Assembly: GCF_006715045.1 (NCBI RefSeq)
Contig: NZ_VFML01000001.1
Coordinates: forward strand, 744,001 to 808,000
Reading direction: 5' to 3'
Length of the DNA stretch: 64,000 nt
Source: Amycolatopsis cihanbeyliensis
GTDB lineage: Bacteria; Actinomycetota; Actinomycetes; Mycobacteriales; Pseudonocardiaceae
Part shown: positions 2,691 through 41,588 of the stretch, one piece after another
How positions within the stretch are numbered: the stretch's first letter is position 1
How the letters are laid out: every line of letters begins with the position of its first letter
The notes under the pieces: model-generated
Database searches by the model: none
What the model was told of the DNA's origin: nothing
What the model saw: only the letters and a program-made list of their open reading frames with translations
Made by a program: the position numbers and the translations under genes

Positions 2691-3042
2691 CCACGAACCC
2701 GGCACGGGCCGGTCACGTTCGCGTGCTGCCGGTCCCACCCACCACGACCGGGTAGGTGCCCCCGCACGGGGCAGCGTCGTTCGCATTGCCCTTCCCATCC
2801 TCATGCAACCTCTCATCCGGTTTTCCGCACTCGGTCGGCGAGCCGCCCGGGCCGCCACTGTTCGCCGGAACCGGTGTGTTTGCTGCCCACGCGCGTGCGT
2901 TGGCCGTCCGCAACCGCGCGTTTGCCGTTCGCGCGGGGCTCGTCCTGGGAGGTGCCCGTCCACCGGCCACGAATGGCAGGTGGACGACCTGGCTGACGAG
3001 CCGCGAAACCGACAAGACTTCGCTGGCAACGGGAGGACCACG
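2691..3042. other. Intergenic region, 352 bp, holding repeat copy A
   Basis: No gene is supported here. The left two thirds carry no obvious signal beyond GC-rich sequence with several CGCG-type words. The last 80 bp hold the first copy of the 66-bp interspersed element described separately, ending 16 bp before the start codon of the small zinc protein. Confidence 0.6.
2961..3026 (+). repeat. Interspersed 66-bp element, copy A
   Basis: Aligned without gaps to 39316-39381, it matches at 53 of 66 positions (80%). Its core is GGCCACGAAT, then CAGGT-GGACG-ACCTG, then a degenerate right arm. The tail GCGAAACCG is identical in both copies. In this copy the outer stem is partly decayed but the inner CAGGT/ACCTG stem is intact. 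It lies directly upstream of the start at 3043, so it may be in that gene's promoter or leader. I do not recognise the family. Confidence 0.75.
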
Positions 3043-3264
3043 ATGTCAGCGACGTTCCGGTACTGGTGTGGCGAGTGCGGCTACAAGACGCCGTGGCTCG
3101 ACGAATGGGCGGGCGCCGAAGAACTCGAGCGCCACTATCTACGGCGGCACCCCGGCATCGAGCCGGGCGGCGACTTCGAGATCCGGCGCGGCGACGGGCA
3201 GGGCTGCCTCGGCACCGTGGCCGTCCCGTTCCTTCTCCTGCGCAGGCCGGACCGACGGCGTTAA
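3043..3264 (+). CDS. Small C2H2-like zinc-binding protein, 73 aa
   Basis: This short ORF has a good Shine-Dalgarno (GGGAGGACC) ahead of ATG 3043. The N-terminal half reads WCGECGY and later HYLRRH, giving C-X2-C-X18-H-X4-H, a spacing compatible with a single C2H2 zinc-finger or zinc-ribbon knuckle. A further Cys lies near residue 54, and the C-terminus is basic (RRPDRRR). A DNA- or RNA-binding role is possible, but I do not recognise a characterised family. It is followed after 3 bp by a convergent SARP-type regulator gene. The upstream region is the 66-bp repeat, an unusual promoter context. Confidence 0.7.
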   Translation: MSATFRYWCGECGYKTPWLDEWAGAEELERHYLRRHPGIEPGGDFEIRRGDGQGCLGTVAVPFLLLRRPDRRR

Positions 3265-3267
3265 GGC

Positions 3268-4224
3268 TCATACGTCCCCGCGTAACACCGCCTGGTGCGC
3301 GCGGTGCGCCACGTCGCTCGGCTCCACCCCGAGGTCGTCCGCCAACCGGTGGCGCAACCGAGCGAACGCGCCGAGGGCGTCGGCCCGCCTTCCGCTGCTG
3401 TGCAGGGCGCGCATCAGCAGCGCGGCCAGCGGCTCGCTGTACGGGTGCGCCGAGGTCAACGCGGACAGCTCGCCGATCACCTCGGGGTGCCTGCCCAGCC
3501 GCAGTTGCCCGTCCAGCTTCTCCTGCAGTAATGCCGTCCTGCGTTCGGTCAGCCGTCGCCGTTCCCCTTCCGCGAACGGCCCTGGCAGGCCGGCCAGCGG
3601 CTCGCCCCGGAACAACTCCAGTGCGCCGGCGTACCCGCCGACCGCGGCGGCCAGGTCGCCAGCGCGCTTGGCCGCGCCCGCCTCGGCGGCGATCTCCTCC
3701 ACCCGAGTCGAGTCCAACCACACCCCACCACCGGCGAACCGGTAGCCGCCGCGGTCACTGCCGATCACCGAATCGCGCCGTCCGTCGCCGGCCCCCAGGC
3801 ACGTGCGAAGCCGGTACACGTACACCGGCACCACGTTCGCGACCGGAGGCTCCATCCCCCACACGCCATCGAGCAGCTCCCGCCTGCTGACCGTCACGTC
3901 ACGGCGCAGTACCAACGCTGCCAGCAACGCCTGCTGCCGCACCGGCCCGAGGTTCAGCGGCACCTCGCCACGCCACGCCCGCAGCGGACCGAGCACTCTC
4001 AGCCGAAGTGGCGGGCCGGGTGCCGGAGGCGCACTCGGCGTGACCGCCAGCCCGAGCCTGAGGAGGATCCCCCTGAGGTGGCCTTCCACCGAGACCTCGG
4101 ACATGGCCAGCTCGGTGGCGGCCTCGGCGACGGTCAAGCCACGGCCGACGGCCTGCAGCACATCCCGCTCGCGAGCGGTGAGCGCCTCGGTGCGCGAGTC
4201 GTGGTCGAATGTGGTCAGCGCCAC
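3268..4224 (-). CDS. LuxR-type HTH fused to a SARP/BTAD transcriptional regulator
   Basis: The 318-residue protein starts at GTG 4224, 6 nt after a GGGGGAG Shine-Dalgarno on the minus strand. Residues about 12-60 are a GerE/LuxR helix-turn-helix (LTARERDVLQAVGRGLTVAEAA). Next comes an OmpR-like winged helix of SARP type (RLRVLGPLRAWRGEVPLNLG, then VYVYRLRTCLG with GGYRF). The last 130 residues form a bacterial transcriptional activation domain of helical repeats with the family hallmark DDLGVEPS. SARPs usually activate secondary-metabolite genes. An extra LuxR HTH in front is uncommon and gives the protein two DNA-binding modules. No biosynthetic cluster is adjacent, so its targets are unknown. 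Confidence 0.85.
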   Translation of the reverse strand: MALTTFDHDSRTEALTARERDVLQAVGRGLTVAEAATELAMSEVSVEGHLRGILLRLGLAVTPSAPPAPGPPLRLRVLGPLRAWRGEVPLNLGPVRQQALLAALVLRRDVTVSRRELLDGVWGMEPPVANVVPVYVYRLRTCLGAGDGRRDSVIGSDRGGYRFAGGGVWLDSTRVEEIAAEAGAAKRAGDLAAAVGGYAGALELFRGEPLAGLPGPFAEGERRRLTERRTALLQEKLDGQLRLGRHPEVIGELSALTSAHPYSEPLAALLMRALHSSGRRADALGAFARLRHRLADDLGVEPSDVAHRAHQAVLRGDV

Positions 4225-4639
4225 GGCGGACTCCCCCGTTCTCGACTGTCTGGCCGACGTGCGACAGATGGTGGCGTTCGGGCTGGTGGGAGGGCCAGGC
4301 CAGAGACCGGCCATATGTGACCGGTCCGCACGTCGACGTCCGATCTCGGGAATGGCACCGGCACGACCGACCGGTTCGGCGCGCGTCCGCGGGGCGCCGG
4401 TCCGTCCGGCTCGCGATTCCGGACGCGCCGAGCATCCGCTACACCGCGTGCGGCATCCCGCACGTCGTCGCGTCGAGCTGTTGTCGACCGGCCAGTGAGT
4501 GACGGCTCACCGAGGAGCGGATCGCCTCACCGGTGTAGGCGGGGCAAGGTGCCCGGCCGCTGCCGGTACGAGCCGGTCCCGGCACTTCGGACGTACCGGG
4601 ACCGGTCGCGCCATCGGTCGCCGTCGCCCTGCCCGACAC
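4225..4639. other. Intergenic region, 415 bp
   Basis: No coding sequence is supported on either strand. The right half holds the inverted repeat listed as the protease terminator (4573-4605). The part next to 4224 should carry the promoter of the SARP-type regulator, but I see no clear -35/-10 pair. Confidence 0.5.
4573..4605 (-). terminator. Hairpin downstream of the secreted protease gene
   Basis: CCGGTCCCGG (4573-4582) pairs perfectly with CCGGGACCGG (4596-4605) across a 13-nt loop, about 35 bp beyond the stop of the leftward protease gene. There is no T-run, as is usual for actinobacterial terminators. Confidence 0.5.
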
Positions 4640-30539: not shown

Positions 30540-31628
30540 TCACGGGTGAGCGAGTCCCGCCATGAGCAGCCCGACGAAGTGCCGCATGTCGGCCTTCAGG
30601 CAGGCAGGTTGTGCGTGCTTGCCGTCGCAGCCTTCCGCCCAGGTGCTGCCGTCGCCGTAGTCGACGAAGGTGTGCGGAATCCCGGCCGCCACCAGGTTGT
30701 CCCTGGTGACCAGGTTGGTATCGCGTGCCACGCTCTCGGCGAGGGCCGCCACGGGTTCCTCGGCCAGGTTGCCGCCGTTGCCCGCGTACATCGCCACGCC
30801 CATGCCGCGCAGCGACTCCACGTGCTGTGCCGGGCTTCTCACGTTCCACACCGTGTCCAGCGGCCACACCGGCACGCCGAAGATCGCGTCCGCCGGCACT
30901 GTCGGCGTGCCGCTGCCGGGCAGTTGCGTGGTGCCGACCACCGCCGCCCGCTGCGCCTGGTTCAGCAGGTCGAGCCCGCCGGAGAAGCTGCCGAGGTAAC
31001 CGAACAGCTCGGGCCTGCGCTCGGCGTAGTGGAACGCGCCGAAGCCGCCCATCGAGTGCCCGGAGATCGCCCTTGCGTCCCGCGTCGAGATCGTCCGCAG
31101 GTTCGCGTCGACGAACGGGATCACCTGGTCGAGGTGGAAGTTCTCCCAGTTCTGCTGCCCGAGCTCGGCGGGCGAGTTCACCCAGTTCGTGTACCAGCCG
31201 CGACCGGACCCGTTGGGCGCCACGTTGATCAGCGGGACACCGCCGGCCGTGGACTCCTCGAACATCTGCTGGTTCAGCGCGGTGTCCGGGTAGTCGGGGT
31301 GGCCGTGCAGGTGGTACTGCACCGGGTAGCGGGTGCCGCCGGAAGAGTCGTAGTCCTCCGGCAACGTCACCATGATCACGTGCTCGCCGGAGACCTGGCC
31401 CGCCATCGCCGAGTACTTCGGCACCTCGTCCGTTCGCACGACGAACGTGAACGTGCGCTCGTTCCCGTCCACCCACCACGGCTGCTTGACGACGGTCAAC
31501 CCGTGGCCGTCGGTGAGGACCGGCGGCGCGGTCGACGCCCGCGCGCCCGGCGTGGCTCCGGTCAGGCCGAGCACGCTCACCAGCGCGAAGCCGAGACCGA
31601 GTGCCGTCGGCATCCACCTTCGCCTCAT
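30540..31628 (-). CDS. Secreted alpha/beta-hydrolase esterase (PF00756 type), last gene of the ESX accessory string
   Basis: The 362-residue protein begins RRRWMPTALGLGFALVSVLGL with an ALA-like cleavage region (GARAS), a Sec signal peptide. The esterase D/mycolyltransferase-like fold is recognised by YPVQYHLHGH, the oxyanion region, the nucleophile elbow ISGHSMGGFGAFHYA (Ser in G-H-S-M-G) and HTFVDYGDGSTWAEG with the likely catalytic His. A cysteine pair occurs near the C-terminus. Actinobacterial relatives include antigen-85-type mycolyltransferases and feruloyl/S-formylglutathione esterases. ATG 31628 shares one base with the stop of the upstream serine hydrolase, so the two are translationally coupled. 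Confidence 0.85.
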   Translation of the reverse strand: MRRRWMPTALGLGFALVSVLGLTGATPGARASTAPPVLTDGHGLTVVKQPWWVDGNERTFTFVVRTDEVPKYSAMAGQVSGEHVIMVTLPEDYDSSGGTRYPVQYHLHGHPDYPDTALNQQMFEESTAGGVPLINVAPNGSGRGWYTNWVNSPAELGQQNWENFHLDQVIPFVDANLRTISTRDARAISGHSMGGFGAFHYAERRPELFGYLGSFSGGLDLLNQAQRAAVVGTTQLPGSGTPTVPADAIFGVPVWPLDTVWNVRSPAQHVESLRGMGVAMYAGNGGNLAEEPVAALAESVARDTNLVTRDNLVAAGIPHTFVDYGDGSTWAEGCDGKHAQPACLKADMRHFVGLLMAGLAHP

Positions 31629-32773
31629 CACGACTCTCCTTCGCACAGGGCGGCGTTGACCACGTCGGCGGCCGCGGGGTCCTTCCCGATGATGTTGGCG
31701 TTGGTCATCAGCGACGCGAACCGGCCGTCGTCGGTGACCATCGTGATCGACGCGTGCCCGGTCGTCGAGATGCCGTCGTGCCCCCACGCCACACCACCGC
31801 ACGAAAGGGCCAGGTTGAACAGGCCGAGGCCGTAACCTGCCGGGGAACCCGGCGCGACCGGCACGGTGGTACGCATCTCGGCGAGTGCCTCGGCCGAGAC
31901 GACCTCGCCGCCGGCGAGCGCGCGGTAGAACGTCGCCATATCGCCCATCGAGGAGGCCATCGCACCGGCGGTGCTCAATCGGGACAGCTCGACCATGGTC
32001 GTGGCGTCGAGCCAGAAGAAGAGACCGCCCAGCCGGAAGCCCTGGTAGCCGGGCACGTACGGCTCGGCCAGCGCCCGCTCCCCCTGCGCAGGGAACGACG
32101 TGCCGGTCAGCCCGAGCGGCTCGATGATCCGCTCGGTGATCGCGTCACCGACGAACTGGCCGGTGATCTTCTCGATCAGCATGCCGAGCACCAGGTAGCC
32201 GACGTTGGAGTAGTGCATCGGCCCGCCGGGTTCGGACACCGGCGCGTCGTCCATCGCCGCTCGCACCACCGCGGCCAGCTCGTAGGTGCCGTCCGGCCCC
32301 GGCTCCGCCCCGCCGGCCTCGCGGGGCAGCCCGGCGGTGTGGTTGAGCAGCTGGCGCACCGTGATGACGTTGCCGTCGTAGTTCCCGGTGACCACGCCGG
32401 GCAGGTACCGCTCGACCGGCGCGTCGAGCTCGGCGAGGCCCTCGTCGACCAGTTGCAGCACCACCGCCGCCGTGAACGTCTTGGTCTGGCTACCGATCCG
32501 GAAATGGTCGGCCGCCGTGATCGGCCGGTCCTCGCGGGTGCTGGCGGACCCGCTGGTCAGTGTCCATGCCTCGGTGCCCCGCCCGGCATGGACGGCCGCG
32601 CCGGGGCCGGTCTTCTGCTGGTACCGGTCGAGCATGGCCTGGGTGTCCGCGTGCTCGTCGGCCCACGCCGGTGCGAAGGGGGCGACGACGGCGAGCGCGA
32701 CACCTCCCGCGAGCGCGACCAGCCACCGCTGTGTCGCTCTGGTCGCTCTGGTCGCTCTGGTCGCTCTCGTCAC
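31628..32773 (-). CDS. Secreted serine beta-lactamase-like hydrolase / D,D-peptidase
   Basis: The 381-residue protein carries an odd N-terminus, a 3-residue ATR repeat (from a 9-bp DNA repeat), then a signal peptide (RWLVALAGGVALAVVAPFAPAWA). Class-C/PBP4* motifs are present: FRIGSQTKTF (S-x-x-K), MHYSNVGYLVLG (Y-x-N) and a C-terminal GHDGISTTGHAS (HxG-type box). It would act outside the cell on peptidoglycan stem peptides, esters or D-amino acid peptides. GTG 32773 overlaps the previous stop by 4 nt (GTGA) and follows GAGGAACTC. Its position within an ESX accessory string suggests a wall-remodelling role coupled to secretion. Confidence 0.85.
   Translation of the reverse strand: MTRATRATRATRATQRWLVALAGGVALAVVAPFAPAWADEHADTQAMLDRYQQKTGPGAAVHAGRGTEAWTLTSGSASTREDRPITAADHFRIGSQTKTFTAAVVLQLVDEGLAELDAPVERYLPGVVTGNYDGNVITVRQLLNHTAGLPREAGGAEPGPDGTYELAAVVRAAMDDAPVSEPGGPMHYSNVGYLVLGMLIEKITGQFVGDAITERIIEPLGLTGTSFPAQGERALAEPYVPGYQGFRLGGLFFWLDATTMVELSRLSTAGAMASSMGDMATFYRALAGGEVVSAEALAEMRTTVPVAPGSPAGYGLGLFNLALSCGGVAWGHDGISTTGHASITMVTDDGRFASLMTNANIIGKDPAAADVVNAALCEGES
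32733..32768 (-). repeat. Four copies of a 9-bp tandem repeat in a signal peptide
   Basis: GTCGCTCTG occurs at 32733, 32742 and 32751, and with one mismatch at 32760. Read on the minus strand it encodes A-T-R units in the positively charged n-region of the serine hydrolase. Copy number changes would keep frame and alter only n-region length and charge. Confidence 0.8.
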
Positions 32774-33633
32774 CTGAGTTCCTCCCCGGTCGTCTCGGGT
32801 TCCCGGTCCCGAGTCTCGGATGATCCGCCACCGGCCAGGTCGCCGATAACGGTGAGCCCTTCCCGGACCACGTTGAGCACGCCGACCGCGCCCTCGATCA
32901 GCTTCACCAGGTTCTCGCCGCTGGCGAGCAACGCGCCCAGCTTTGCCGCGATCCGCCCGCCGTAGTCCACGGCGATCGCCACACACCGCGGGATGGCCTG
33001 CGCGATACTCGCCCCGAACGTGGCGGGGGCCGCGGCGATGGCCTCGGTCATGATCGGCACGATCTTGCCGACGGCTTCGGTAATCAGCCGAGTGACGATG
33101 TCGACGACCTGCGCGACCACCTCCCCCGCGGCGATCATCGCCTTCGAACTGGTCGCCGCCGTCTCGGCGACCGACCTGATCCCGTCGGTCAGCTTGGTGG
33201 CCGTCTCCGCGTAGTTCGCCTTGGCGGAACCGGACCACTCGCTGGTCTCGCGTTCTGTCGTGGAGCTGTAGTCGTCGGCGACGGAGTTCGCGGCCCGCGA
33301 GGCACCTTCGTGCTCGCCGGCCGGGCCCGACACCGAGTCCGGCTCGCCGCGCAACTGGTCGAGCGGCTCCTCGAGGAACGAGATCATCGGGGTGAGGAAG
33401 TCGCACCCCGCGCTGGCCAAGGCGGACAGTGGGCTCGCCGTCGAACCGAGCATCCCGAGCGAGACGGCGGGCTCGCCCGCGATCTCGGCCGACAACCATT
33501 CCTTGTTGCCGACGGAGTCCCCGGCAATCCGCAGTTCGGCGAGCGCCGTGCTGATCTCCACCGCCGACGGATCGGGGCCACCGGACTCCGACACTTCCCC
33601 GGAGCGTTCCCGCGGTTGCGTTGTCGTGCTCAT
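32770..33633 (-). CDS. WXG-bearing helical protein, probable ESX-type secretion substrate (287 aa)
   Basis: The protein is almost wholly alpha-helical, with low-complexity Ser/Glu ends. A W-S-G motif at residues 133-135 (TSEWSGSAKANYAET) sits between two predicted helices, as in WXG100 proteins. It is followed by a long Ala-rich amphipathic region (residues 150-265) similar in feel to EspA/EspE-type substrates. No signal peptide is present. It lies between an EspC-like gene and a Sec-exported hydrolase, with 4-nt overlaps on both sides. The start ATG 33633 follows GAGGAGGGC. No enzymatic motif is visible. Assignment as a secreted effector or partner rests on context and the WXG turn. Confidence 0.65.
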   Translation of the reverse strand: MSTTTQPRERSGEVSESGGPDPSAVEISTALAELRIAGDSVGNKEWLSAEIAGEPAVSLGMLGSTASPLSALASAGCDFLTPMISFLEEPLDQLRGEPDSVSGPAGEHEGASRAANSVADDYSSTTERETSEWSGSAKANYAETATKLTDGIRSVAETAATSSKAMIAAGEVVAQVVDIVTRLITEAVGKIVPIMTEAIAAAPATFGASIAQAIPRCVAIAVDYGGRIAAKLGALLASGENLVKLIEGAVGVLNVVREGLTVIGDLAGGGSSETRDREPETTGEELR

Positions 33634-33962
33634 CGAGTGCCCTCCTCGAGCATCGACCCGAGACCGGTGAGTGCGGCGGCGTGGCCCTCATCGGAGCGCT
33701 GGTACTGATCGGCGACTCGCCGCATCCCATGGCTCACCGTGTCCAATGTCGACGCGGCCTGAGCGACCGCGTCCGCCGTCTCGGTCATCGCGGAGCCGAT
33801 GCCTGCCGCGATGAACTGCGCGAACGCGCCCAGCGACAGCGACCCCATCTCACCCGGCAGCCCCGTGCCGGCCGAGGACAGCTGGTCGGCGTGCGCGGCC
33901 AGCCTGGTGGCGTGTCCGCGCAGCTGCTCGGGGTCGACGCTGTACGACCGCTGTGTGGTCAT
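33630..33962 (-). CDS. EspC-like type VII secretion target, 110 aa
   Basis: A short helical protein beginning YSVDPEQLRGHATRLAAHADQL, followed by a 30-residue glycine/serine turn region and a second helix (ADAVAQAASTLDTVSHGMRRVADQYQRSDE). This is the usual shape of the ESX-1 secretion-associated EspC/DUF2580 family, with the D-P-E-Q-L opening and the closing Y-x-x-x-D/E-like segment (YQRSDE) resembling the YxxxD/E export signal. It would form a helical hairpin recognised by an ESX ATPase. ATG 33962 overlaps the stop of the YbaB-like gene by 4 nt. Confidence 0.78.
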   Translation of the reverse strand: MTTQRSYSVDPEQLRGHATRLAAHADQLSSAGTGLPGEMGSLSLGAFAQFIAAGIGSAMTETADAVAQAASTLDTVSHGMRRVADQYQRSDEGHAAALTGLGSMLEEGTR

Positions 33963-34306
33963 CGCACTACCTCCGCCGGCAGGTGCTGCGTGAGCTGGGT
34001 GAGTGCCGGGCTGTCACCCAGGTAGCCAGCCATCACCTCGGCCATCCGTTCGGCGGCGAGGCACTGGGCTTCGCGCGCGGTGTTCACGATGAGCCCGGCC
34101 AGCGCGTCGGCCTCGAGCTTGCGCGCCATCGGCGTCAGCGTGACTCCCTCGAGCACCCCGGCGGCGTTCACCGATACCGTGACCTCGCCGCGCGGCGACC
34201 TCGCGGTCGCCCCGGACTCCTGCAGGCTCTCGCGTGCCTGGCGAGCGCCGCGCGCCGCGCGCTCGAGGCGGTCGCGGTAATCGGCCAGCCATTGTGCTGG
34301 ATCCAT
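33959..34306 (-). CDS. YbaB/EbfC-like protein of ESX loci, 115 aa
   Basis: The pattern is an N-terminal helix (MDPAQWLADYRDRLERAARGARQARESL), a central beta-sheet (GEVTVSVNAAGVLEGVTLTPMARKL) and a C-terminal helix (LAGLIVNTAREAQCLAAERMAEVMAGYL). This is the YbaB/EbfC fold found beside many ESX and EspG genes in actinobacteria. It probably dimerises; nucleoid binding is the family's classical activity, but its function in secretion loci is unknown. ATG 34306 follows AAGGAGACC. The gap to espG upstream is 59 bp, the only sizeable one within the string. Confidence 0.8.
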   Translation of the reverse strand: MDPAQWLADYRDRLERAARGARQARESLQESGATARSPRGEVTVSVNAAGVLEGVTLTPMARKLEADALAGLIVNTAREAQCLAAERMAEVMAGYLGDSPALTQLTQHLPAEVVR

Positions 34307-34365
34307 GGCGGTCTCCTTCTTCCTTCCCCCGTGTGTTGACCGAGCTTTTGTTGTGTTCCCCCGCG

Positions 34366-35172
34366 CTAGCGGCGGGCGAGCGTCGCCGCCTCGCGTAGTA
34401 CCCGGACCAGTTCGCCGCGCCGCAACGGGTTGATGCTCACCCAGCCGCGAGCGTCGTTGTCCACCCTGATTCTCCCTTGCGGACTGTCCAACCACGACAG
34501 TTCCAGCGGGCGCTCCGCTCCGCCCGCTCGCCGGACGACGGTGCCGAGCTGCCCACGTCCGGTCACCGGCGGCACCAGCTCGACGAGCGCGTCGACAGCG
34601 GCCTCGTCGCCCCCGCGTTCCCGGATCAGCGTGCGCACACGCTTCCGGGGTGCCGCGATACCCGCCGTGTTCTCGAGCAGCCGCGTCGCGTCACCGACGA
34701 CGCCGGGAGGCAAAGTGATCGGCGCCGCCGGCGCGGCCTCCACCCTCGGGATCCGGTTCGTGAACTCGTCGGTCAGCGCGGTCGCCGTGACCCGCGTGAC
34801 GGCGACCGGACCCGGTGTGCCGCCGATCGACTGGCGGCACACCACCGCGCGACGCCCGTGGACCATGGCCAGGACGCCGGTCGCCTTACCACGGTCGACC
34901 ACCACGAGGTCGACCGTGCTCCGGTGCTCGCGCAGCGCGGTGACCAGGTCCGCCGCGGCGCCGACCGGCCCGCGTGCCGTGGCGAGGCCTCGCTCGGACA
35001 GTGCCTGGGCGGCCCCGCCCAGCAGCGCCTTGCGCTCGCCCTCGATCCGGCCGAACGAGGGCACCCGCAGCGGAAACGGGAAGCGCTCCCCCGCGAAGGT
35101 CGCGAGGAGGTCCAGCTCCGGCAAGCTGAACGGGACGCCGTGTTCGACGGGTGGTTCGGTCGTCACCGTCAT
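34366..35172 (-). CDS. EspG-family ESX secretion-associated protein
   Basis: The 268-residue protein has EspG features: an N-terminal strand region (FSLPELDLLATFAGERFPFPLRVPSFG), the segment RGPVGAAADLVTALREHRSTVDLVVVDRG, and the C-terminal sheet GQLGTVVRR with RGWVSINPLRRGELVRVLREA. EspG proteins are cytosolic chaperones that bind the tip of PE-PPE dimers and deliver them to the ESX ATPase. The candidate client, a PPE/WXG-like protein, is encoded two genes upstream in the same string. ATG 35172 overlaps the stop of the preceding gene by 4 nt. Confidence 0.85.
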   Translation of the reverse strand: MTVTTEPPVEHGVPFSLPELDLLATFAGERFPFPLRVPSFGRIEGERKALLGGAAQALSERGLATARGPVGAAADLVTALREHRSTVDLVVVDRGKATGVLAMVHGRRAVVCRQSIGGTPGPVAVTRVTATALTDEFTNRIPRVEAAPAAPITLPPGVVGDATRLLENTAGIAAPRKRVRTLIRERGGDEAAVDALVELVPPVTGRGQLGTVVRRAGGAERPLELSWLDSPQGRIRVDNDARGWVSINPLRRGELVRVLREAATLARR

Positions 35173-35540
35173 GCGGGCCGCCCTGATGAACCGGGCCGGC
35201 CGGCCGCGTCACCGACCTCTCCCCTGGCCCGAACGTCCTCGCCGGACTGGTCCTCGTGCTCCTCGTACTTCCGCTTGGCACTGGCGAGCAGTTGCTTGTA
35301 CTCCCGCACCTCCCGCTCCGTGGCCTCGACCTCGCCGGCGAGGCCGGAACTGCCCGCAGCCTCGCGCAACCGCATCGCCAGGTGCACGGCCGGCGGCGCG
35401 GTGCCGAGCATCGGCAGCCGCTCGGCCAGCCGGCTCGCGGTGGCCACCAGGTCGCCGGTCAGGTCACCGAGCTCGGCCAGCGTCGTGATCCGCTGGTCGA
35501 GCAGGTCCAGCTCGAGTCCGATTCCCTGCCCGTCGCTCAC
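35169..35540 (-). CDS. Coiled-coil protein in the ESX accessory string, 123 aa
   Basis: I do not recognise a family. The sequence begins with a leucine-rich helix (LELDLLDQRITTLAELGDLTGDLVATASRLAERL). After a proline turn it has a long charged coiled coil (EVEATEREVREYKQLLASAKRKYEEHEDQ) and a disordered Gly/Arg tail. Two antiparallel helices of this size resemble the PE/WXG100 partner shape, so it may be the dimer partner of the PPE-like protein just upstream. The start GTG 35540 overlaps that gene's stop. There is no W-x-G turn. Confidence 0.65.
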   Translation of the reverse strand: MSDGQGIGLELDLLDQRITTLAELGDLTGDLVATASRLAERLPMLGTAPPAVHLAMRLREAAGSSGLAGEVEATEREVREYKQLLASAKRKYEEHEDQSGEDVRARGEVGDAAGRPGSSGRPA

Positions 35541-36736
35541 CGGCGGGCCTCCGGCGGAAGGCCGATGACCGCTTCGCTACCCGGCTCCGCGAGCGGGAAG
35601 AGCTCGTGGTCGATCGTCGGCAGGTGGTTTTCGTGCTCTTCCCCCTCCGACCCGCCGCGCGCGCCGGCACCGGGTGGCACCGTGCCCCCGAGCGCACCCG
35701 TACGCGCCGCGGCCGACTCGGCGGCGACCTGCGCCGCCGCGCCGCCCGGCCCACCCTGGATCGGCATCGCACCGGCCCGCATGCCCTGTGCCAACGGGTT
35801 GGCGGGGCCCATCCCGGCGACGGGGCCCATCCCCGCGGCCTGTCCCATCCCGGTGACGACGCGCCCCGCGCCCACGAGCGCGCCGGCGGTGGCACCCGCC
35901 GACGGCCCCGTGGCCGCGCCGCCACCGCCTCCGGAGCCGACCAGGTCCCGCCAGGACCGCGTGCCGCCTGCGGCCCCACCGGCGGGCTCGGTCGTGCCGC
36001 TCGGCGTCGCGGCGGCGGCCGGAATCGTTCCCTGCGCCTGGCCGATCAGGTGACTCGAGTCCGTCAGGCTGGATTCGTAGGTTCGCATCGAGCGGACCGC
36101 TTGCTGCTTGTGCATGTCCGTCGCGTTGGCGCCGACGTAGAAGCTGAACCCCGCGCCGCCCACCGCGTCGAAGGCATTGCCCGTGTCCGCGGTGGGCGTG
36201 CTCGGTGCCGGCCGGCTCGCCGGCGTCGCCGCGGTGAGATCCGCCCAGTTCGTCGCCGCGTCGGTCATCGGCGCGGCCGCCTCCCCCGGTGGCGCGGGCA
36301 TCGTGGCCCGTGCCCTCGCCAGCGCGTCGGCCGCCTGCTCCGCGGCCCGCTCACCCGCGTGGGCCAGCTCGGCGATCTTCTCCACCCGGTCGGCGAGCAG
36401 GTCGAGCCTGCGCGCGGCCTGCTCGGCGCCCGTGCCCTGCCAGCCCTCCAGTAACGCGACCCGCTGCTCGCGCAGCACCTCGGCGTGGTTGACCAGCGCG
36501 GACCGGTGCTCGGACCACTCCGCGGCGATGGTGCTGACGTCGGCGACATCGGCGTCCTGCCACAACATCTGGTACAACTCCTCGTGGCTGTAGGTGTCCC
36601 AGTTCACGCCGCCTTCCGGCGGCGCGGGCCGGCCGAAATACCCATCCCACACACCGGACGTTCCCGTGGTCGCCGGTTGCTCGGCCGCGGACACCGGCTC
36701 CGGCCACACCCCTTCCGCTGACGTCTCGCTCGCCAC
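35537..36736 (-). CDS. PPE/WXG100-like protein heading the ESX accessory string (399 aa)
   Basis: After a 55-residue disordered start, helices carry VSTIAAEWSEHRSALVNHAEVL, then a W-Q-G turn at residues 99-101 (LLEGWQGTGAEQAARRLDLLADRV), the WXG hallmark shared by PPE proteins. The C-terminal 200 residues are Gly/Ala/Pro/Met-rich with AGMGPVAGMGPANPLAQGMR-type repeats, like the PPE-domain proteins of Pseudonocardiaceae. No signal peptide exists, so export by a type VII system is expected. The start GTG 36736 lies 8 nt after GGGG. The upstream 126-bp gap, between this gene and the NACHT gene, should hold the string's promoter. Confidence 0.78.
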   Translation of the reverse strand: MASETSAEGVWPEPVSAAEQPATTGTSGVWDGYFGRPAPPEGGVNWDTYSHEELYQMLWQDADVADVSTIAAEWSEHRSALVNHAEVLREQRVALLEGWQGTGAEQAARRLDLLADRVEKIAELAHAGERAAEQAADALARARATMPAPPGEAAAPMTDAATNWADLTAATPASRPAPSTPTADTGNAFDAVGGAGFSFYVGANATDMHKQQAVRSMRTYESSLTDSSHLIGQAQGTIPAAAATPSGTTEPAGGAAGGTRSWRDLVGSGGGGGAATGPSAGATAGALVGAGRVVTGMGQAAGMGPVAGMGPANPLAQGMRAGAMPIQGGPGGAAAQVAAESAAARTGALGGTVPPGAGARGGSEGEEHENHLPTIDHELFPLAEPGSEAVIGLPPEARR

Positions 36737-36862
36737 CCCAGAATCCCCTTTCCGGTCGCTGACCCCTGGTCGGCGGTGCCCCATGCTCGTGGCCGCGGGG
36801 AACAGCGCGGAAGGTCACGCGGCGGCCATTTCTGGCCGGTGGTCTTGACCAGGCAAAAGGAC

Positions 36863-39265
36863 TCAGCGACCGGCGCGGTACGCCTTCGCGAGGTGCTCCT
36901 GCAGGCGCGCGTGGCGGAACTGGTAGACGGCGCCGGACCGGCGCAGCACGCCCCGCCGGTAGGCGTCGTCGAGCAACGCGTTGACAGCCCAGGGCAACCT
37001 GCCGACGAGCGGGAGGCGGAAGCGAGTGAAGAGGAGCCACTGCCCCCACGCGGTGAAGGTCACGATGTACGCCAGGCCCGCGCTCATCCCGCCCATCAGT
37101 CCCAGCAGCAGACCGGTCTCCAGGTTCCAGTGCAGATCCCAGGGCAGCGGATCCGCGATCGCCTGCACCGCACCGATGGCCGCGAAGCCGCCGAAGGCGA
37201 TGGCCAGCGCGAGGGCGAGCGCGAGCCCGCAGGCGAGGCGTAGCGCGGTCGCGCGGTTGGCCGCGAGCAGATCGCCGGGGCTGGTGGCGGTGGTGAGGTT
37301 GGCCGGCGCCTCGAGGACGGCCGCGAGTGCCAGCACCACCCCACAGGCCAGACCGAAGACGAGGGCGTAGACGCCGGCGTCGACAAGGGTCACCCGCACG
37401 AGCACGCCGGCGTCGACAGCGTAGGTCCAGTTCGGGGACAGCACCTTCACCACGGTGGCCGCCAGCGCATAACCGACGCCCGCGACAACGCCGCCCAGCA
37501 CCCCGGCCGCGAACCGCGCGACGACCTTGCGCCGGAAGCCGGGCTGCCGACCCGATCGGTCGAGCAGCCGCACCCGGACTCGCGTCGGCTCGGGCATCCT
37601 GCCCCTGCGCACCACCACCAGCAGGTACAGCAGGCCGAACGGCACGCCGACGACCGGGCCGATGACCAGCCCGTCCACGAGGACGACATGCCCATGCAGC
37701 GGCGTGCCGGACACGAGCGCGTTGACGGGGCTGAAGACCAGCCAGTCGACCAGCGCCGCGGCCACACACGCGAAAGCCGCCACCAGAAGGACACGCGACG
37801 AGCGGCGAAGCGAGCCGCCCATCCGCCACCATTCCAGGTCGCCGGTGCCCCGCCGGTCGAGGTCGTCGGCGAGGAATCCCAGCCAGCGCCGAACGCGGTC
37901 GACCTCCCAGCTCCGCCGCGTGCCGCCGTCGCGGGCGGATGCCGCCTGCCCGCCGTACACGGTGGGCACGAAGGTGTCGAGCAGGTGCTCCTCGACGGCG
38001 CGCGGCGTGGGGAACCGCGTGGCGTCCAGCAGGTCGGTCGGGTCGCGGTCGCGCGAGTCACTGTAGACCGTGCGGGCGAGGCCGACCATGAGCGGCGTCG
38101 TCAGCACGGCGGCCAGGTTGGCCGGCGGGCTCGCCTCGGCATTGTCGGGGTCACGCAACGCGCTGAGGACGGCGTCCCACGTGGTGCCGCTGCCGCCGTC
38201 GGCGGTGCCGCGTCGGGCGGTGCGGGGCAGGTAGCCTGCGAGGTCGTCGGGGGTGAGGTCGGTCAGCTCGACCACGGCGGCCGAGGTCAGCACGTCGACC
38301 ACGGTCACGGCCCGCTGGTACTCGGCGAAACGGCTGGTCAGCACCAGCGGCGTCGACAGGGAGTTCAGCGTTTCCAGGGCCGGGCGGTGCAGGCCCTCGG
38401 CGATCTCGTCGAAGCCGTCGAGCACCGGCAGGACGCGCCCGGTGTCGACCAGCACGGCCGCCAGCGTCGCCCCGCCGGGCGCGGCGGCGGCGAGGCCGGG
38501 CTGGTCACGCTGCAACCTCTCGACCAGCCACGTGCGCAACGGTGTCGCGGTCGGGTCCCACGACCCGATGTCGAAGATCACCGGGACCGCGCCGCCCGGC
38601 TCCCGCGCGGCCAGCGTATCGAGGACGAACCGCAGGGCCAGCACGGTCTTGCCCGAGCCGGCGCGGCCCAGCACCACCAGCCGCCGTGACGGAACACGCC
38701 GGTAGGCGCTCGCGATGTCGCCCACCTCGCCGGAGAGGTCCAGCGGGGCGGCGGTCACGCCAGCGGGGACGCGGCAGATGTTGTCCCAGTGGTCGGCAAG
38801 GTGCTCAGGTGCCTGCCGCCACCGCACGGGCAGCGGGAACGGGTCGTGCACGCGGCGCAGTTCCTCCGCGCGCCGCAGCCGGGCGGCCATGACCCTGGCC
38901 AGGTGGTCGGCCGCCTCGGACACCTCCGGCGGGACCGCGGGCAGTCCTCCGGGTGCCGGTACGGAACGCGCTTCGCCCTCCACCGGTGCCGGCCCAGCGG
39001 CGGTGGGGGACGGTGCGGGCTCGGGCGGCTCCTGTCGCGGTTGCTTACCGTCGGCCGCGGCCAGCAGGTTACGGCGTTCGTCGGGGGTCACGTCCAGCGC
39101 GTCGGCGAGCAAGGTCACCGTGCCGACACGCGGGTCGGTGCCGCTGCCGGTCTCCAGCCTGCGAATGGTCCGCACGCCGACACCGGACCGCGCGGCCAGC
39201 TCGTCCTGGGTCAGGCCCGCCCGGCGCCGGGCATCACGAAGGAGGACGCCGAAACGGTTGGCCAC
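36863..39265 (-). CDS. XRE HTH - NACHT NTPase - multi-pass membrane protein (800 aa)
   Basis: Residues about 1-65 are an XRE helix-turn-helix (FGVLLRDARRRAGLTQDELAARSGVGVRTIRRLE). A Pro-rich linker leads to a NACHT domain from about residue 165: Walker A VVLGRAGSGKTVLALRF, Walker B VLPVLDGFDEIAEG and the sensor LVLTSRFAEYQ. The C-terminal 300 residues hold at least six hydrophobic segments and end in a soluble helix pair (YQFRHARLQEHLAKAYRAGR). It is a STAND-type switch anchored in the membrane. The start GTG 39265 follows GGAGGAACTC. Whether it regulates the downstream ESX string or acts in defence, like bacterial NACHT antiphage proteins, cannot be decided. Confidence 0.85.
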   Translation of the reverse strand: MANRFGVLLRDARRRAGLTQDELAARSGVGVRTIRRLETGSGTDPRVGTVTLLADALDVTPDERRNLLAAADGKQPRQEPPEPAPSPTAAGPAPVEGEARSVPAPGGLPAVPPEVSEAADHLARVMAARLRRAEELRRVHDPFPLPVRWRQAPEHLADHWDNICRVPAGVTAAPLDLSGEVGDIASAYRRVPSRRLVVLGRAGSGKTVLALRFVLDTLAAREPGGAVPVIFDIGSWDPTATPLRTWLVERLQRDQPGLAAAAPGGATLAAVLVDTGRVLPVLDGFDEIAEGLHRPALETLNSLSTPLVLTSRFAEYQRAVTVVDVLTSAAVVELTDLTPDDLAGYLPRTARRGTADGGSGTTWDAVLSALRDPDNAEASPPANLAAVLTTPLMVGLARTVYSDSRDRDPTDLLDATRFPTPRAVEEHLLDTFVPTVYGGQAASARDGGTRRSWEVDRVRRWLGFLADDLDRRGTGDLEWWRMGGSLRRSSRVLLVAAFACVAAALVDWLVFSPVNALVSGTPLHGHVVLVDGLVIGPVVGVPFGLLYLLVVVRRGRMPEPTRVRVRLLDRSGRQPGFRRKVVARFAAGVLGGVVAGVGYALAATVVKVLSPNWTYAVDAGVLVRVTLVDAGVYALVFGLACGVVLALAAVLEAPANLTTATSPGDLLAANRATALRLACGLALALALAIAFGGFAAIGAVQAIADPLPWDLHWNLETGLLLGLMGGMSAGLAYIVTFTAWGQWLLFTRFRLPLVGRLPWAVNALLDDAYRRGVLRRSGAVYQFRHARLQEHLAKAYRAGR

Positions 39266-39305: not shown

Positions 39306-41588
39306 CTAGTAAGCCCACCGGCCACGAACGGCAGGTGGTCGACCTGGTTCGTGGCCTGCGAAACCGGCAGGACCTCGCCGGGCTCGGGCCTCGGTGACGA
39401 CGGTGGGGTCGAGGTTGGGGTGCTGCCGAGCGGCCCGGCTCCAATGGTGCCGGGCTCGGTCCGGTCTACCCAGGGCCGCGGCGATGTTGCCGAGGCCGGT
39501 CTCGGCGCGCGCGGCTTCGAAGGTGCTTCCGCATCGATGGCTGCGCTCGAGCGCGTCGCTGTATGCGGTCGCCGCCTCCTCGTGCTCGCCCGCGTGGAAG
39601 TGGATCCAGCCGCGCGCGTTGCAGGCCATGGTCGCGTCCAGGTCGAGGCCGAGCTCTTCGAACGCGGTGAGTGCCTCGGTGGCGTGGTCGAGCGCGCCAG
39701 GGTGATCACCGAGTTCGGCCAGGACCATGGCGAGGCCGCGTTGGGCGATGGCGGCGTTGCGGTGGGCTCCGGTTCGCCGGTAGAACGCGAACGCGGTCCA
39801 CATACCTTCGGCCGCGCCGGCGTGGTCGCCGCGGAAGAAGTGGATCCAGGCGAGGTTGTTGAGGGTGGTGTGCACCCCGTTCTCGTCGCCGATGGTGCGG
39901 AACAGCGGCAGCGCGGCACGGTAGTGGCGTTCGGCGCCGCCGACGTCCCCGCGGTCGATGGTGGCGACGCCGAGGTTGTTGACCGTGATGGCCTGGGCCC
40001 AGGTGTCCCCGACGGCCTCGGCGGAGGCGAGAGCGTGTTCGTGGGTGGTGATCCAGGGGTCCCAGAGTTTGGTGAGGAAGAAGAAGCCGCGCAGCGCGAA
40101 CGCGAGCTGCCAGCACCGGTCGTGGACACCGTGCCGTGCGGCGAGAGCGCAGAGCGCGACCAGGTTGGCCCACTCCCCCCGGATCCAGTCCTCCCCGGAA
40201 CCGTCGCGGTGGAAGTCCGGCACCGACACGGGCAGGTACGGGTAGGCGAACTCGGGTCGGTATCGCTGCGGGGCCAGGATCCGGTCCACCTGGTCGGTGG
40301 CGTGCAGGGTGAGATCCAGCAGCCGGCGCAGCGCGACGCGCCGTTCGGTCCCGGGAATCTCGGGGAGCGCGACGGTGCGGGCGAAGGTGCGGAGAAGATC
40401 GTGGAACTGGTACCGGCCGGTGTGCTGGTGGGTAAGGAGGTGCGCGTCGTGCAAGCCGGCCAGCAGAGCTTCCGTGGTGCGGAGGTCCGTGTCGGCCAGG
40501 GCGGCGGCGCTGTAGAGCTCGAGGTCCGTCCCGGGGTGGAGGGCCAGGAGCCCGAACAGGCGTCGTTGCCCGGGCGGTAGGTCCTGGTAGGACAGTCGGA
40601 AGGTGGCCGTGACACTGCGCTCGCCGTCGTCGAGCTCACCCAGTCGAGCTGATTCGACGGCGAGACGCTGATCGAGATCGGCCGGGCTCCAGCTGGGGTT
40701 CGCGCGCAGCCGAGCCCCGGCGACCCGGATGGCAAGGGGAAGCCGGCCGCAGTGGTCCACGACGCTGCCGAACACCTCCTCGGCACCGTCCCCACCGGGG
40801 TGGTCCCGGACCAGCTCGGCGAGCAGGTCGATCGCCTGGGTCCGGGGTAGCAGGGACACCGGCACGTGCCAGGCGTCGTCGAGCGCGGCGAGCCGGTGCC
40901 TGCTGGTGATCAGGACCCGGCATTTCGGCTCGGCCGGGATCAGCGGACGCAGCTGCCGAACACTCCTGGCGTTGTCCAGGACGATCAGCATGCTCCGGCC
41001 CAGCAGGCGGTCCCGATACAGCGCGGCCCGGTCGTCGACGTCGGCCGGAATCTCCTCGCCGGGAACTCCGAGGAACCTCAGGAACCGGTCCAGCGCTTCG
41101 GCCGCGGTGACCTCGCCGGCATCCGGGGTGTGCCCGCGCAGGTCCAGGAACAGGTGGCCATCGGTGAAACGGGCCTGCAGGCGGTGTGCGCAGCGCACCG
41201 CCAGTGTCGTCTTGCCGACCCCGGCCATGCCATGGACCGCGCACACCGCCGCTGCCCCATCCACCTCCCGCGACAACGCCGCCCGGATCTGGTCGAGTTC
41301 CTCGGCCCGGCCGGTGAAGTGCGGGGTGACCGCGGGCAACCCGGATCGCATGGGCGTCAACACCACCCCACGTCGGCGGGGTGCGGCATCGGCGGGCAGC
41401 AGGGACGCCAGCGCTCCTCCGGTGGTGAACTCGGTATCGCACAGGGCGGCCAGCGCCGCGTTGGGCCGGGCGGCACCGGTCTCCACCTTGCTCAGGTAAC
41501 CCTTGCTGTAGTGGACCTTCGCCGCCAGGTCCGTCAGCGACAGCCCGGCCTCCCGCCGCAACCTGCGCAACTCCGCCCCGAACGACAC
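39306..41588 (-). CDS. XRE HTH - NB-ARC - TPR regulator (760 aa)
   Basis: Residues about 1-60 are an XRE HTH (GAELRRLRREAGLSLTDLAAKVHYSKGYLSKVETG). From about residue 95 comes an NB-ARC ATPase with FTGRAEELDQI, Walker A AVHGMAGVGKTTLAVRCAH, Walker B SMLIVLDNARS, RVLITSRHRLAAL and the GLPL-like CGRLPLAIRVAGARL. From about residue 430 tetratricopeptide repeats follow (NNLGVATIDRGDVGGAERHYRAAL and later units). This layout is that of AfsR-like or TPR-STAND regulators without the SARP domain. GTG 41588 was preferred, with GAGGAG upstream; GTG 41603 is possible. The last 15 or so residues are encoded by the 66-bp repeat and are probably not ancestral. Confidence 0.87.
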   Translation of the reverse strand: MSFGAELRRLRREAGLSLTDLAAKVHYSKGYLSKVETGAARPNAALAALCDTEFTTGGALASLLPADAAPRRRGVVLTPMRSGLPAVTPHFTGRAEELDQIRAALSREVDGAAAVCAVHGMAGVGKTTLAVRCAHRLQARFTDGHLFLDLRGHTPDAGEVTAAEALDRFLRFLGVPGEEIPADVDDRAALYRDRLLGRSMLIVLDNARSVRQLRPLIPAEPKCRVLITSRHRLAALDDAWHVPVSLLPRTQAIDLLAELVRDHPGGDGAEEVFGSVVDHCGRLPLAIRVAGARLRANPSWSPADLDQRLAVESARLGELDDGERSVTATFRLSYQDLPPGQRRLFGLLALHPGTDLELYSAAALADTDLRTTEALLAGLHDAHLLTHQHTGRYQFHDLLRTFARTVALPEIPGTERRVALRRLLDLTLHATDQVDRILAPQRYRPEFAYPYLPVSVPDFHRDGSGEDWIRGEWANLVALCALAARHGVHDRCWQLAFALRGFFFLTKLWDPWITTHEHALASAEAVGDTWAQAITVNNLGVATIDRGDVGGAERHYRAALPLFRTIGDENGVHTTLNNLAWIHFFRGDHAGAAEGMWTAFAFYRRTGAHRNAAIAQRGLAMVLAELGDHPGALDHATEALTAFEELGLDLDATMACNARGWIHFHAGEHEEAATAYSDALERSHRCGSTFEAARAETGLGNIAAALGRPDRARHHWSRAARQHPNLDPTVVTEARARRGPAGFAGHEPGRPPAVRGRWAY
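39316..39381 (+). repeat. Interspersed 66-bp palindromic element, copy B
   Basis: This copy retains a near-perfect fold: GGCCACGAAC (39320-39329) pairs with GTTCGTGGCC (39347-39356), and inside it CAGGT (39332-39336) pairs with ACCTG (39342-39346) around a GGTCG loop. The tail CCTGC/GCAGG could form a second small hairpin. It aligns to 2961-3026 at 53 of 66 positions. It lies inside the last codons of the leftward NB-ARC gene and about 50 bp upstream of the NACHT start, so it has become part of one protein's C-terminus. Confidence 0.8.

What the first reader, a model, noticed from the sequence alone, without database searches (positions are those of the whole stretch)
30540..36736. Eight-gene ESX accessory string that ends in two Sec-exported hydrolases, with no ESX core in sight
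Seen: seven gene junctions, six with 1-4 nt overlaps, in the order PPE/WXG-like (WQG 99-101), coiled-coil, EspG-like, YbaB-like, EspC-like, WXG-bearing helical protein (WSG 133-135), serine beta-lactamase-like hydrolase and esterase. Known: EspG chaperones PE/PPE clients for ESX ATPases. Inference: the two signal-peptide hydrolases belong to the same function, perhaps opening the wall or lipid layer for the type VII cargo, so one transcript would feed two export routes. I know no described system with this exact content.
Basis: partly seen in the sequence, partly recalled or inferred. Interest (0 to 1): 0.72.

Follow-up and report, generated by a model that had tools for sequence, protein, structure and literature searches.

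The report
Sensor-wired type VII secretion gene cassette
A block of genes that supplies cargo and helpers to a bacterial protein-export machine sits, together with two exported enzymes, behind a likely DNA switch next to a membrane sensor related to animal immune receptors, which suggests that one sensor controls two protein-export routes at once.

Summary
The eight genes are there as described: six overlaps of 1-4 nt, one 59-nt gap. Three things change the picture. (1) It is an orphan cassette: the only ESX core found in the genome lies about 2.4 Mb away, yet A-B-C recurs in 76 and D-E-F in 64 of 77 Pseudonocardiaceae loci. A is PPE-like by fold; B and E carry the YxxxD/E export motif (74/76, 64/64); C is EspG; D is YbaB-type; F is WXG-like. 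(3) The hydrolases (30 of 77 loci) follow S: 28 of 42 loci with S, 2 of 35 without; and 8 of 19 S genes lacking an EspG cassette have G or H close by. A 20-bp palindrome lies upstream of A in 35 of 41 S-bearing loci (11 of 504 other genes), in 5 of 6 divergent promoters beside S, and at four places in this window (0.14 expected; two helped define it). Best reading: a NACHT-type membrane regulator controls a unit that feeds type VII and Sec export. Binding and function are untested.

The parts
35537..36736 (-). A: PPE-like protein (WQG), predicted EspG client
   Evidence: Pfam PPE 0.02, below cut-off; helical hairpin 51-145 at high confidence in a model of mean pLDDT 64; nine best PDB matches are chains of PE/PPE or PE/PPE/EspG structures, best E 7e-3; A-B-C in 76 of 77 loci
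35169..35540 (-). B: PE/EspC-like small helical protein with YxxxE
   Evidence: YxxxD/E in 74 of 76 (21% in shuffles); profile match to E, prob 95.6, E 1.2e-8
34366..35172 (-). C: EspG-family chaperone
   Evidence: PF14011 2.4e-35; one of 17 EspG matches in this genome
33959..34306 (-). D: YbaB-type protein of 115 aa, EspL-like candidate helper
   Evidence: PF02575 1e-11; D-E-F in 64 of 77 loci
33630..33962 (-). E: EspC-like protein with YxxxD
   Evidence: PF10824 1.4e-6; YxxxD/E in 64 of 64
32770..33633 (-). F: WXG-bearing long helical protein, partner of E by inference
   Evidence: PF25547 6e-4, below cut-off; all-helical model, structural matches weak and unspecific
31628..32773 (-). G: S12 DD-carboxypeptidase-like enzyme with signal-peptide-like N terminus
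   Evidence: PF00144 3.8e-59; phmmer 4.9e-56 to an S12 peptidase, 2.3e-50 to alkaline D-peptidase, 1.1e-43 to 1cef (R61 by recall); of 26 G-labelled genes 20 signal-peptide-like, 25 with SxxK
30540..31628 (-). H: PF00756 esterase with signal-peptide-like N terminus
   Evidence: PF00756 1.2e-26; CE1-type esterases, Protein PS1 (3.5e-14) and Ag85B (2.7e-8) matched; signal-peptide-like 17 of 20, GxSxGG 20 of 20
36863..39265 (-). S: XRE-HTH + NACHT + about 6-7 hydrophobic segments, STAND ATPase, candidate regulator of the cassette
   Evidence: HTH_3 1.5e-13, NACHT 3.1e-8; immediately upstream of A in 36 of 77 loci; P-loop in 43 of 43, median 6 hydrophobic segments, range 4-8
36821..36840 (-). 20-bp palindromic candidate operator upstream of A, within an extended site 36823-36852
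   Evidence: extended pattern: 1 match in the window, 0.01 expected
39317..39336 (-). candidate operator 51 bp upstream of S (inside the 3' end of the neighbouring NB-ARC gene)
3043..3264 (+). [not shown]
   Evidence: Z-like genes in 15 other non-duplicate loci, each with S; none in the 35 loci without S; no Pfam match
2962..2981 (+). candidate operator upstream of Z (1 mismatch)
3268..4224 (-). SARP/BTAD regulator with LuxR HTH, candidate regulon member
   Evidence: BTAD 1.5e-36, Trans_reg_C 6.2e-11, GerE 2e-7
4306..4325 (-). perfect candidate operator, 81 bp upstream of the SARP gene

Best explanation
The block is a sensor-controlled regulon unit. S is a membrane-anchored STAND ATPase: an XRE DNA-binding head, a NACHT switch and about six TM segments. 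It binds a 20-bp palindrome upstream of itself and of the operon A-H and so controls the whole block. On activation the operon makes two type VII substrate pairs with their helpers: A/B (PPE/PE-like) with chaperone C (EspG), and E/F (EspC/WXG-like) with helper D (YbaB-type, EspL-like). These travel to the genome's single, distant ESX-4-type machine. The same transcript makes G (DD-carboxypeptidase-like) and H (esterase), which leave by Sec and modify the cell envelope. Shown by computation: gene content, synteny, the type VII motif, signal-peptide-like N termini, the palindrome and its association with S. Inferred: that S binds the palindrome, that it activates rather than represses, the signal (probably envelope-related), the protein pairs, and use of the ESX-4 core.
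For: S directly upstream of A in 36 of 77 loci, within six genes before to seven after C in 42; in an earlier set of 41 loci the gene beyond S is conserved in 1 of 820 pairs. Of 35 loci without S, 7 have a SARP-NB-ARC-TPR and 10 a LuxR-type regulator within three genes upstream of A. Palindrome at 13 or more of 16 positions upstream of A in 35 of 41 S-loci (25 of the 30 not used to derive it), 7 of 35 non-S loci, 11 of 504 other genes; reversed pattern 1 of 41; 100 shuffled palindromes mean 0.6, largest 9. Same element at 15-16 of 16 in 5 of 6 divergent promoters between S and H or G-H. Four sites in the window against 0.14 expected, two of them new finds at Z and a SARP gene. G or H in 28 of 42 S-loci, 2 of 35 others; 14 of 18 close H homologues share a cluster with S. 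YxxxD/E in B 74 of 76, E 64 of 64; signal-peptide-like G 20 of 26, H 17 of 20, A-F 1 of 423. A has a PPE-like fold. Single ESX core.
Against: The S-hydrolase association inside the cassette is largely inherited and the tree-aware test is underpowered (S vs G/H: 5 independent pairs, on average 1.6 the same way, 0.0 the other). The palindrome shows no genome-wide excess in the own genome (41 sites, reversed control 39). Upstream of S itself it reaches 13/16 for only 10 of 43 S genes in cassette loci and 5 of 19 S-only loci; these five are the same physical sites as those before H or G. Six of 41 S-loci lack it before A, and L172, with H beside S, has no convincing site. Six non-S loci have a convincing site before A (a seventh, L145, looks like chance); three of these strains carry S elsewhere, but the S genes of two (L172, L173) lack a good site of their own; the other three strains were not checked. 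37 of 64 loci with D-E-F have no G or H. S was not shown to bind anything.
Confidence: 0.55

Rival explanations
1. One reading: G and H locally open or remodel the wall or a lipid layer so that type VII cargo of the same operon can pass.
For: The tail is often translationally coupled (last gene to G/H: 15 of 28 at -4; G-H: 13 of 15 at -4). G is related to peptidoglycan DD-peptidases. In L149 the tail slot holds a protein with an Amidase_6 domain, another possible wall enzyme.
Against: 47 of 77 loci have no G or H. G or H lies close to S without any EspG cassette in 8 of 19 S-only loci. DD-carboxypeptidases trim stem peptides rather than open the wall (general knowledge).
Confidence: 0.15
2. 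An NLR-like immune system: S senses phage or rivals, and the cassette plus hydrolases are its exported response.
For: S has a NACHT domain. The tail slot of some other loci holds other type VII-like or enzyme-bearing proteins. Weak relatives of F occur in long open frames elsewhere.
Against: PADLOC models match S only in its HTH (best 8.7e-8) and match none of A, B, D, F, G, H; C and E were not scanned. The XRE head and the conserved palindrome point to transcription control. No toxin family was matched in A-H.
Confidence: 0.15
3. The palindrome belongs to another regulator, such as the SARP protein next to its own perfect site, and S is only a neighbour.
For: The best site in the window is upstream of a SARP/LuxR gene. 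Six loci without S nearby keep a convincing site upstream of A, and most S genes have no good site of their own.
Against: The site tracks S: 35 of 41 with S, 7 of 35 without. It lies in five divergent promoters beside S; no gene in those stretches matched my SARP-NB-ARC profile, though small SARP genes were not searched for. Three of the exceptional strains carry S elsewhere.
Confidence: 0.15

Closest known systems
PE/PPE-EspG chaperone pathway of mycobacterial ESX systems
   Same: EspG family C next to a PPE-fold A and a PE-like YxxxD/E protein B
   Different: Order is PPE-PE-EspG, an orphan locus with the ESX core megabases away, PPE similarity below the Pfam cut-off; in the passages of PMC4791881 that I saw espG is described inside complete ESX or ESX-4EVOL clusters
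EspA-EspC-EspD / EspE-EspF-EspH and EspL of ESX-1
   Same: A YbaB-type protein of 115 aa beside an EspC-family small protein and a WXG-bearing partner; EspL (115 aa, YbaB-type) stabilises EspE, EspF and EspH (PMC6319747, abstract and passages)
   Different: Here in one operon with PPE/PE/EspG and hydrolases and linked to a NACHT protein; homology of D or F to EspL, EspD, EspA or EspE was not tested (D has a weak DUF2694 match, 0.049, a family that I recall as holding EspD/EspH)
STAND transcription regulators (MalT, AfsR/SARP, LAL types; names recalled)
   Same: DNA-binding head plus P-loop NTPase switch; SARP-NB-ARC and LuxR-type proteins occupy the same position in 17 of 35 loci without S
   Different: S has an XRE head, a NACHT domain and a multi-TM C terminus and sits with type VII cargo genes; the AAA match of the LuxR-type protein is below cut-off
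S12 DD-carboxypeptidases (R61 type) and CE1-like esterases
   Same: G: phmmer 1.1e-43 to 1cef, SxxK kept; H: CE1 and PS1/Ag85 matches, GxSxGG kept
   Different: Encoded at the end of an ESX accessory operon; substrates unknown

Membership tests
ESX (type VII) secretion system core | EccC, EccD, EccB, EccE and MycP in the locus | tested here: not met
   None among A-H or S; the only core found is L094 at C1:3.23-3.25 Mb
EspG-PE/PPE client set | EspG domain | tested here: met
   PF14011 2.4e-35
EspG-PE/PPE client set | PPE-fold partner | tested here: met
   Nine best structural matches of A are chains of PE/PPE(/EspG) structures, best E 7e-3, prob 0.99-1.00, none at 0.001; Pfam PPE below cut-off
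EspG-PE/PPE client set | YxxxD/E secretion motif on the small partner | tested here: met
   B 74 of 76, E 64 of 64; about 20% in shuffles
EspG-PE/PPE client set | physical A-B-C complex and ESX-dependent export | not testable with these tools
   needs co-purification and secretome
EspACD/EspEFH-EspL type set | EspC-family protein plus YbaB-type helper | tested here: met
   PF10824 1.4e-6, PF02575 1e-11
EspACD/EspEFH-EspL type set | direct homology of F to EspA/EspE and of D to EspL | not tested
   F is only WXG-like; virulence proteins of a listed germ were not fetched
STAND transcription regulators | DNA-binding domain plus STAND NTPase | tested here: met
   HTH_3 1.5e-13, NACHT 3.1e-8, both above cut-offs
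STAND transcription regulators | binds and controls the neighbouring promoter | not testable with these tools
   palindrome association only
Catalogued NACHT antiphage systems | match of S to a defence NACHT model | tested here: not met
   PADLOC-DB 2023: S matched only in its HTH
S12 DD-peptidases (R61 type) | SxxK, YxN and HxG motifs (recalled) | tested here: met
   SxxK 25, YxN 20, HxG 22 of 26 G-labelled genes by regular expression; the 26 include one distant gene in L163 and one truncated gene

The most novel reading that the evidence does not exclude
A bacterial NLR-like membrane protein (XRE-NACHT-TM) is the direct, operator-bound switch of an orphan type VII cargo cassette and of Sec-exported envelope enzymes. 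One immune-receptor-like sensor then coordinates two export pathways, and different lineages have swapped in different STAND-type sensors at the same spot.
Probability: 0.4. Interest if true: 0.8.

Novelty: new variant of a known kind. Interest (0 to 1): 0.64.

Why it matters
Most type VII biology comes from mycobacteria, where main cargo is encoded beside its secretion machine. This genome has 17 EspG genes and one machine, and one cassette type comes with a sensor and a likely DNA switch. If S binds the palindrome, the inducing signal, the regulon and the cargo of an orphan cassette become directly testable in harmless soil actinomycetes, and a NACHT protein gains a regulatory role coupled to protein export.

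Tried and rejected
An ESX core next door: rejected. Hydrolases as universal cassette parts: rejected, 30 of 77 loci. S-hydrolase link as a pure artefact of descent: not excluded inside the cassette tree; the S-only loci argue against it. Structural naming of F: the fold search gave no match at 0.001, mostly long helical proteins, with PE/PPE-complex chains among them at E 0.61-0.73, and PDB profile hits no better than 0.06, so F stays 'WXG-like'. An EspG profile against PDB sequences found nothing at 0.01. Genome-wide regulon from the palindrome alone: rejected, 41 sites vs 39 control. F outside the family (200 genomes of the order): hits of 39% identity or more only in the same family; all others are 35% or less and look like a broad WXG domain. 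Literature, held library only: no paper with EspG + type VII secretion + Pseudonocardiaceae, NACHT + EspG + type VII secretion, or YbaB + NACHT + WXG; EspG + Amycolatopsis gave one unrelated listing; NACHT + STAND + type VII secretion gave four with unrelated titles; D-alanyl-D-alanine carboxypeptidase + type VII secretion + WXG100 gave three unrelated listings. PMC7159879 on STAND-rich conflict systems does not contain WXG, ESX, YbaB or EspG in its main text (find).

My own errors: one search read the wrong record as the window and gave nothing; one search reversed minus-strand loci twice; both were redone. In one search profile drift labels many B genes 'E'; separate B and E profiles were used from then on. 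Loci L168 and L169 were dropped from the 77 because EspG was cut short. The gene caller is a home-made codon-usage script, so some starts, and hence some signal-peptide calls and gaps, are wrong (for example H of the window and of L063, G of L065).
Full report
OBSERVATION. The eight genes are real and placed as stated: A 36736-35537, B 35540-35169, C 35172-34366, D 34306-33959, E 33962-33630, F 33633-32770, G 32773-31628, H 31628-30540, all on the minus strand. Five junctions overlap by 4 nt, G/H by 1 nt, and C/D is a 59-nt gap. Pfam supports EspG (C), YbaB (D), EspC (E), beta-lactamase/S12 (G) and PF00756 esterase (H); A and F match PPE and WXG100_2 only below the cut-offs, and B has no convincing match.

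NO CORE NEARBY. The window lies at C1:744001-808000 of a 7.4 Mb genome in two contigs. That genome has one EccD match and one tandem EccC, at C1:3.235-3.240 Mb (L094), together with EccB, EccE and a subtilase and, by inspection, two WXG100-like genes and glmM/rpsI/rplM-like genes. This is the ESX-4 neighbourhood as I recall it. The genome has 17 EspG matches. In the 15 stretches that hold the other 16 (L095-L109) no gene matched the F profile, and 11 of 15 show an A-like gene within two genes of EspG. All 150 sampled family genomes have an EccD match.

THE CASSETTE IN RELATIVES. C found relatives at E 1e-10 or better, many of them weak, in 58 of 150 family genomes, and 60 loci in named genome contigs by two peptide patterns; the 58 of these that were used are all Pseudonocardiaceae. 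After removing duplicates and two truncated loci, 77 loci including the window remain: A-B-C in 76, D-E-F in 64, G in 25, H in 20, either in 30, both in 15. All eight genes are in 13, two of these with H before G (L147, L071) and one with a truncated G (L110). Overlaps recur: B-C 76 of 76, D-E 63 of 64, E-F 63 of 64, A-B 42 of 76, C-D 25 of 64, tail 17 of 28, G-H 13 of 15.

TYPE VII SIGNATURES. YxxxD/E is present in B in 74 of 76 and in E in 64 of 64, against about 20% in shuffled tails. B and E profiles match each other (prob 95.6, E 1.2e-8). The A model (mean pLDDT 64) has a confident helical hairpin, and its nine best PDB matches are chains of PE/PPE and PE/PPE/EspG structures, best E 7e-3; I take them to be the PPE subunits. 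D has the length and YbaB class of EspL, which stabilises EspE, EspF and EspH (PMC6319747, abstract and passages seen). That D serves E/F is inference. By a crude rule, 20 of 26 G-labelled and 17 of 20 H genes look signal-peptide-bearing, A-F 1 of 423.

THE MISSED GENE. Immediately upstream of A is S (36863-39265): XRE-HTH, NACHT and about six hydrophobic segments. It is at the same place in 36 of 77 loci and nearby in 42. In an earlier set of 41 loci, gene conservation fell from 238 of 820 pairs at the S position to 1 of 820 one gene further. Of the 35 loci without S, 7 have a SARP-NB-ARC-TPR gene and 10 a LuxR-type gene within three genes upstream of A, 4 have such a gene downstream and 14 have neither. 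These classes rest on Pfam scans of a few members (L076, L068; L125, L077, L070), and the AAA match of the LuxR type is below cut-off. A different regulator of the same broad STAND type at the same spot suggests that such a regulator is needed there.

HYDROLASES FOLLOW S. G or H is in 28 of 42 loci with S and 2 of 35 without (Fisher 2e-8, not corrected for descent). On the EspG tree the corrected test is underpowered: 5 independent pairs, on average 1.6 in favour and none against. Independent support comes from S outside the cassette. Of the 37 best S homologues in 100 genomes (E 4.5e-118 or better; ten candidates scored per genome), 18 lie by an EspG match. The other 19 were fetched and show no EspG-profile match; 6 have H divergently adjacent and 3 have G beside S or one gene away (L174 has both), so 8 of 19 have G or H close by; L183 has a weaker G three genes away and was not counted. 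Conversely, of 18 close H homologues (47% identity or more), 8 are in cassettes with S, 6 beside S alone and 4 unlinked, one of these 938 bases from a contig end. G is less exclusive: 10 of the best 25 are in a cassette or near S, by comparing positions.

MECHANISM. Most likely S is a membrane STAND regulator that binds this element and switches on a unit whose products leave by the ESX-4-type machine (A/B with C; E/F with D) and by Sec (G, H). Binding, direction of control, signal, pairing and export are inferred.

KNOWN OR NEW. The parts are known kinds: EspG/PE/PPE, EspC and YbaB-type helpers, STAND regulators, S12 and CE1-like hydrolases. In the passages of PMC4791881 that I saw, espG, pe and ppe are described inside complete ESX or ESX-4EVOL clusters. 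The searches found no description of this combination in the held library, which lacks most subscription papers. I class it as a new variant of a known kind.

Noticed in passing
[not shown]
   Followed up: partly
window 39306-41588 (-): A second STAND protein (XRE-HTH + NB-ARC + TPR) ends just upstream of S; the S palindrome lies inside its last codons, so it may be a later insertion.
   Followed up: partly
window 32735-32773: The start of G carries a short tandem repeat giving the N terminus TRATRATRATRAT.
   Followed up: no
L149:12970-14595: In Actinokineospora iranica the slot after F holds a 419-aa protein with an Amidase_6 domain and a 110-aa small protein (not scanned); by eye a possible type VII-delivered wall enzyme in place of G/H.
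   Followed up: partly
L054:6728-7393 / L110:12506-13171: In Prauserella endophytica the G gene as called is only 221 aa (possibly a decaying copy).
   Followed up: no
L193:1283-1441: A one-mismatch palindrome elsewhere in the own genome (C1:2266977) lies 59 bp upstream of a small DUF6307 gene.
   Followed up: no
L088:4591-6636: In Actinophytocola algeriensis two other genes with signal-peptide-like starts follow F; the 468-aa one has no Pfam match, the 152-aa one was not scanned.
   Followed up: no
G000 genome, L095-L109: 17 EspG matches for a single ESX core; 11 of 15 stretches with the other EspG genes show an A-like gene nearby and none shows F.
   Followed up: partly
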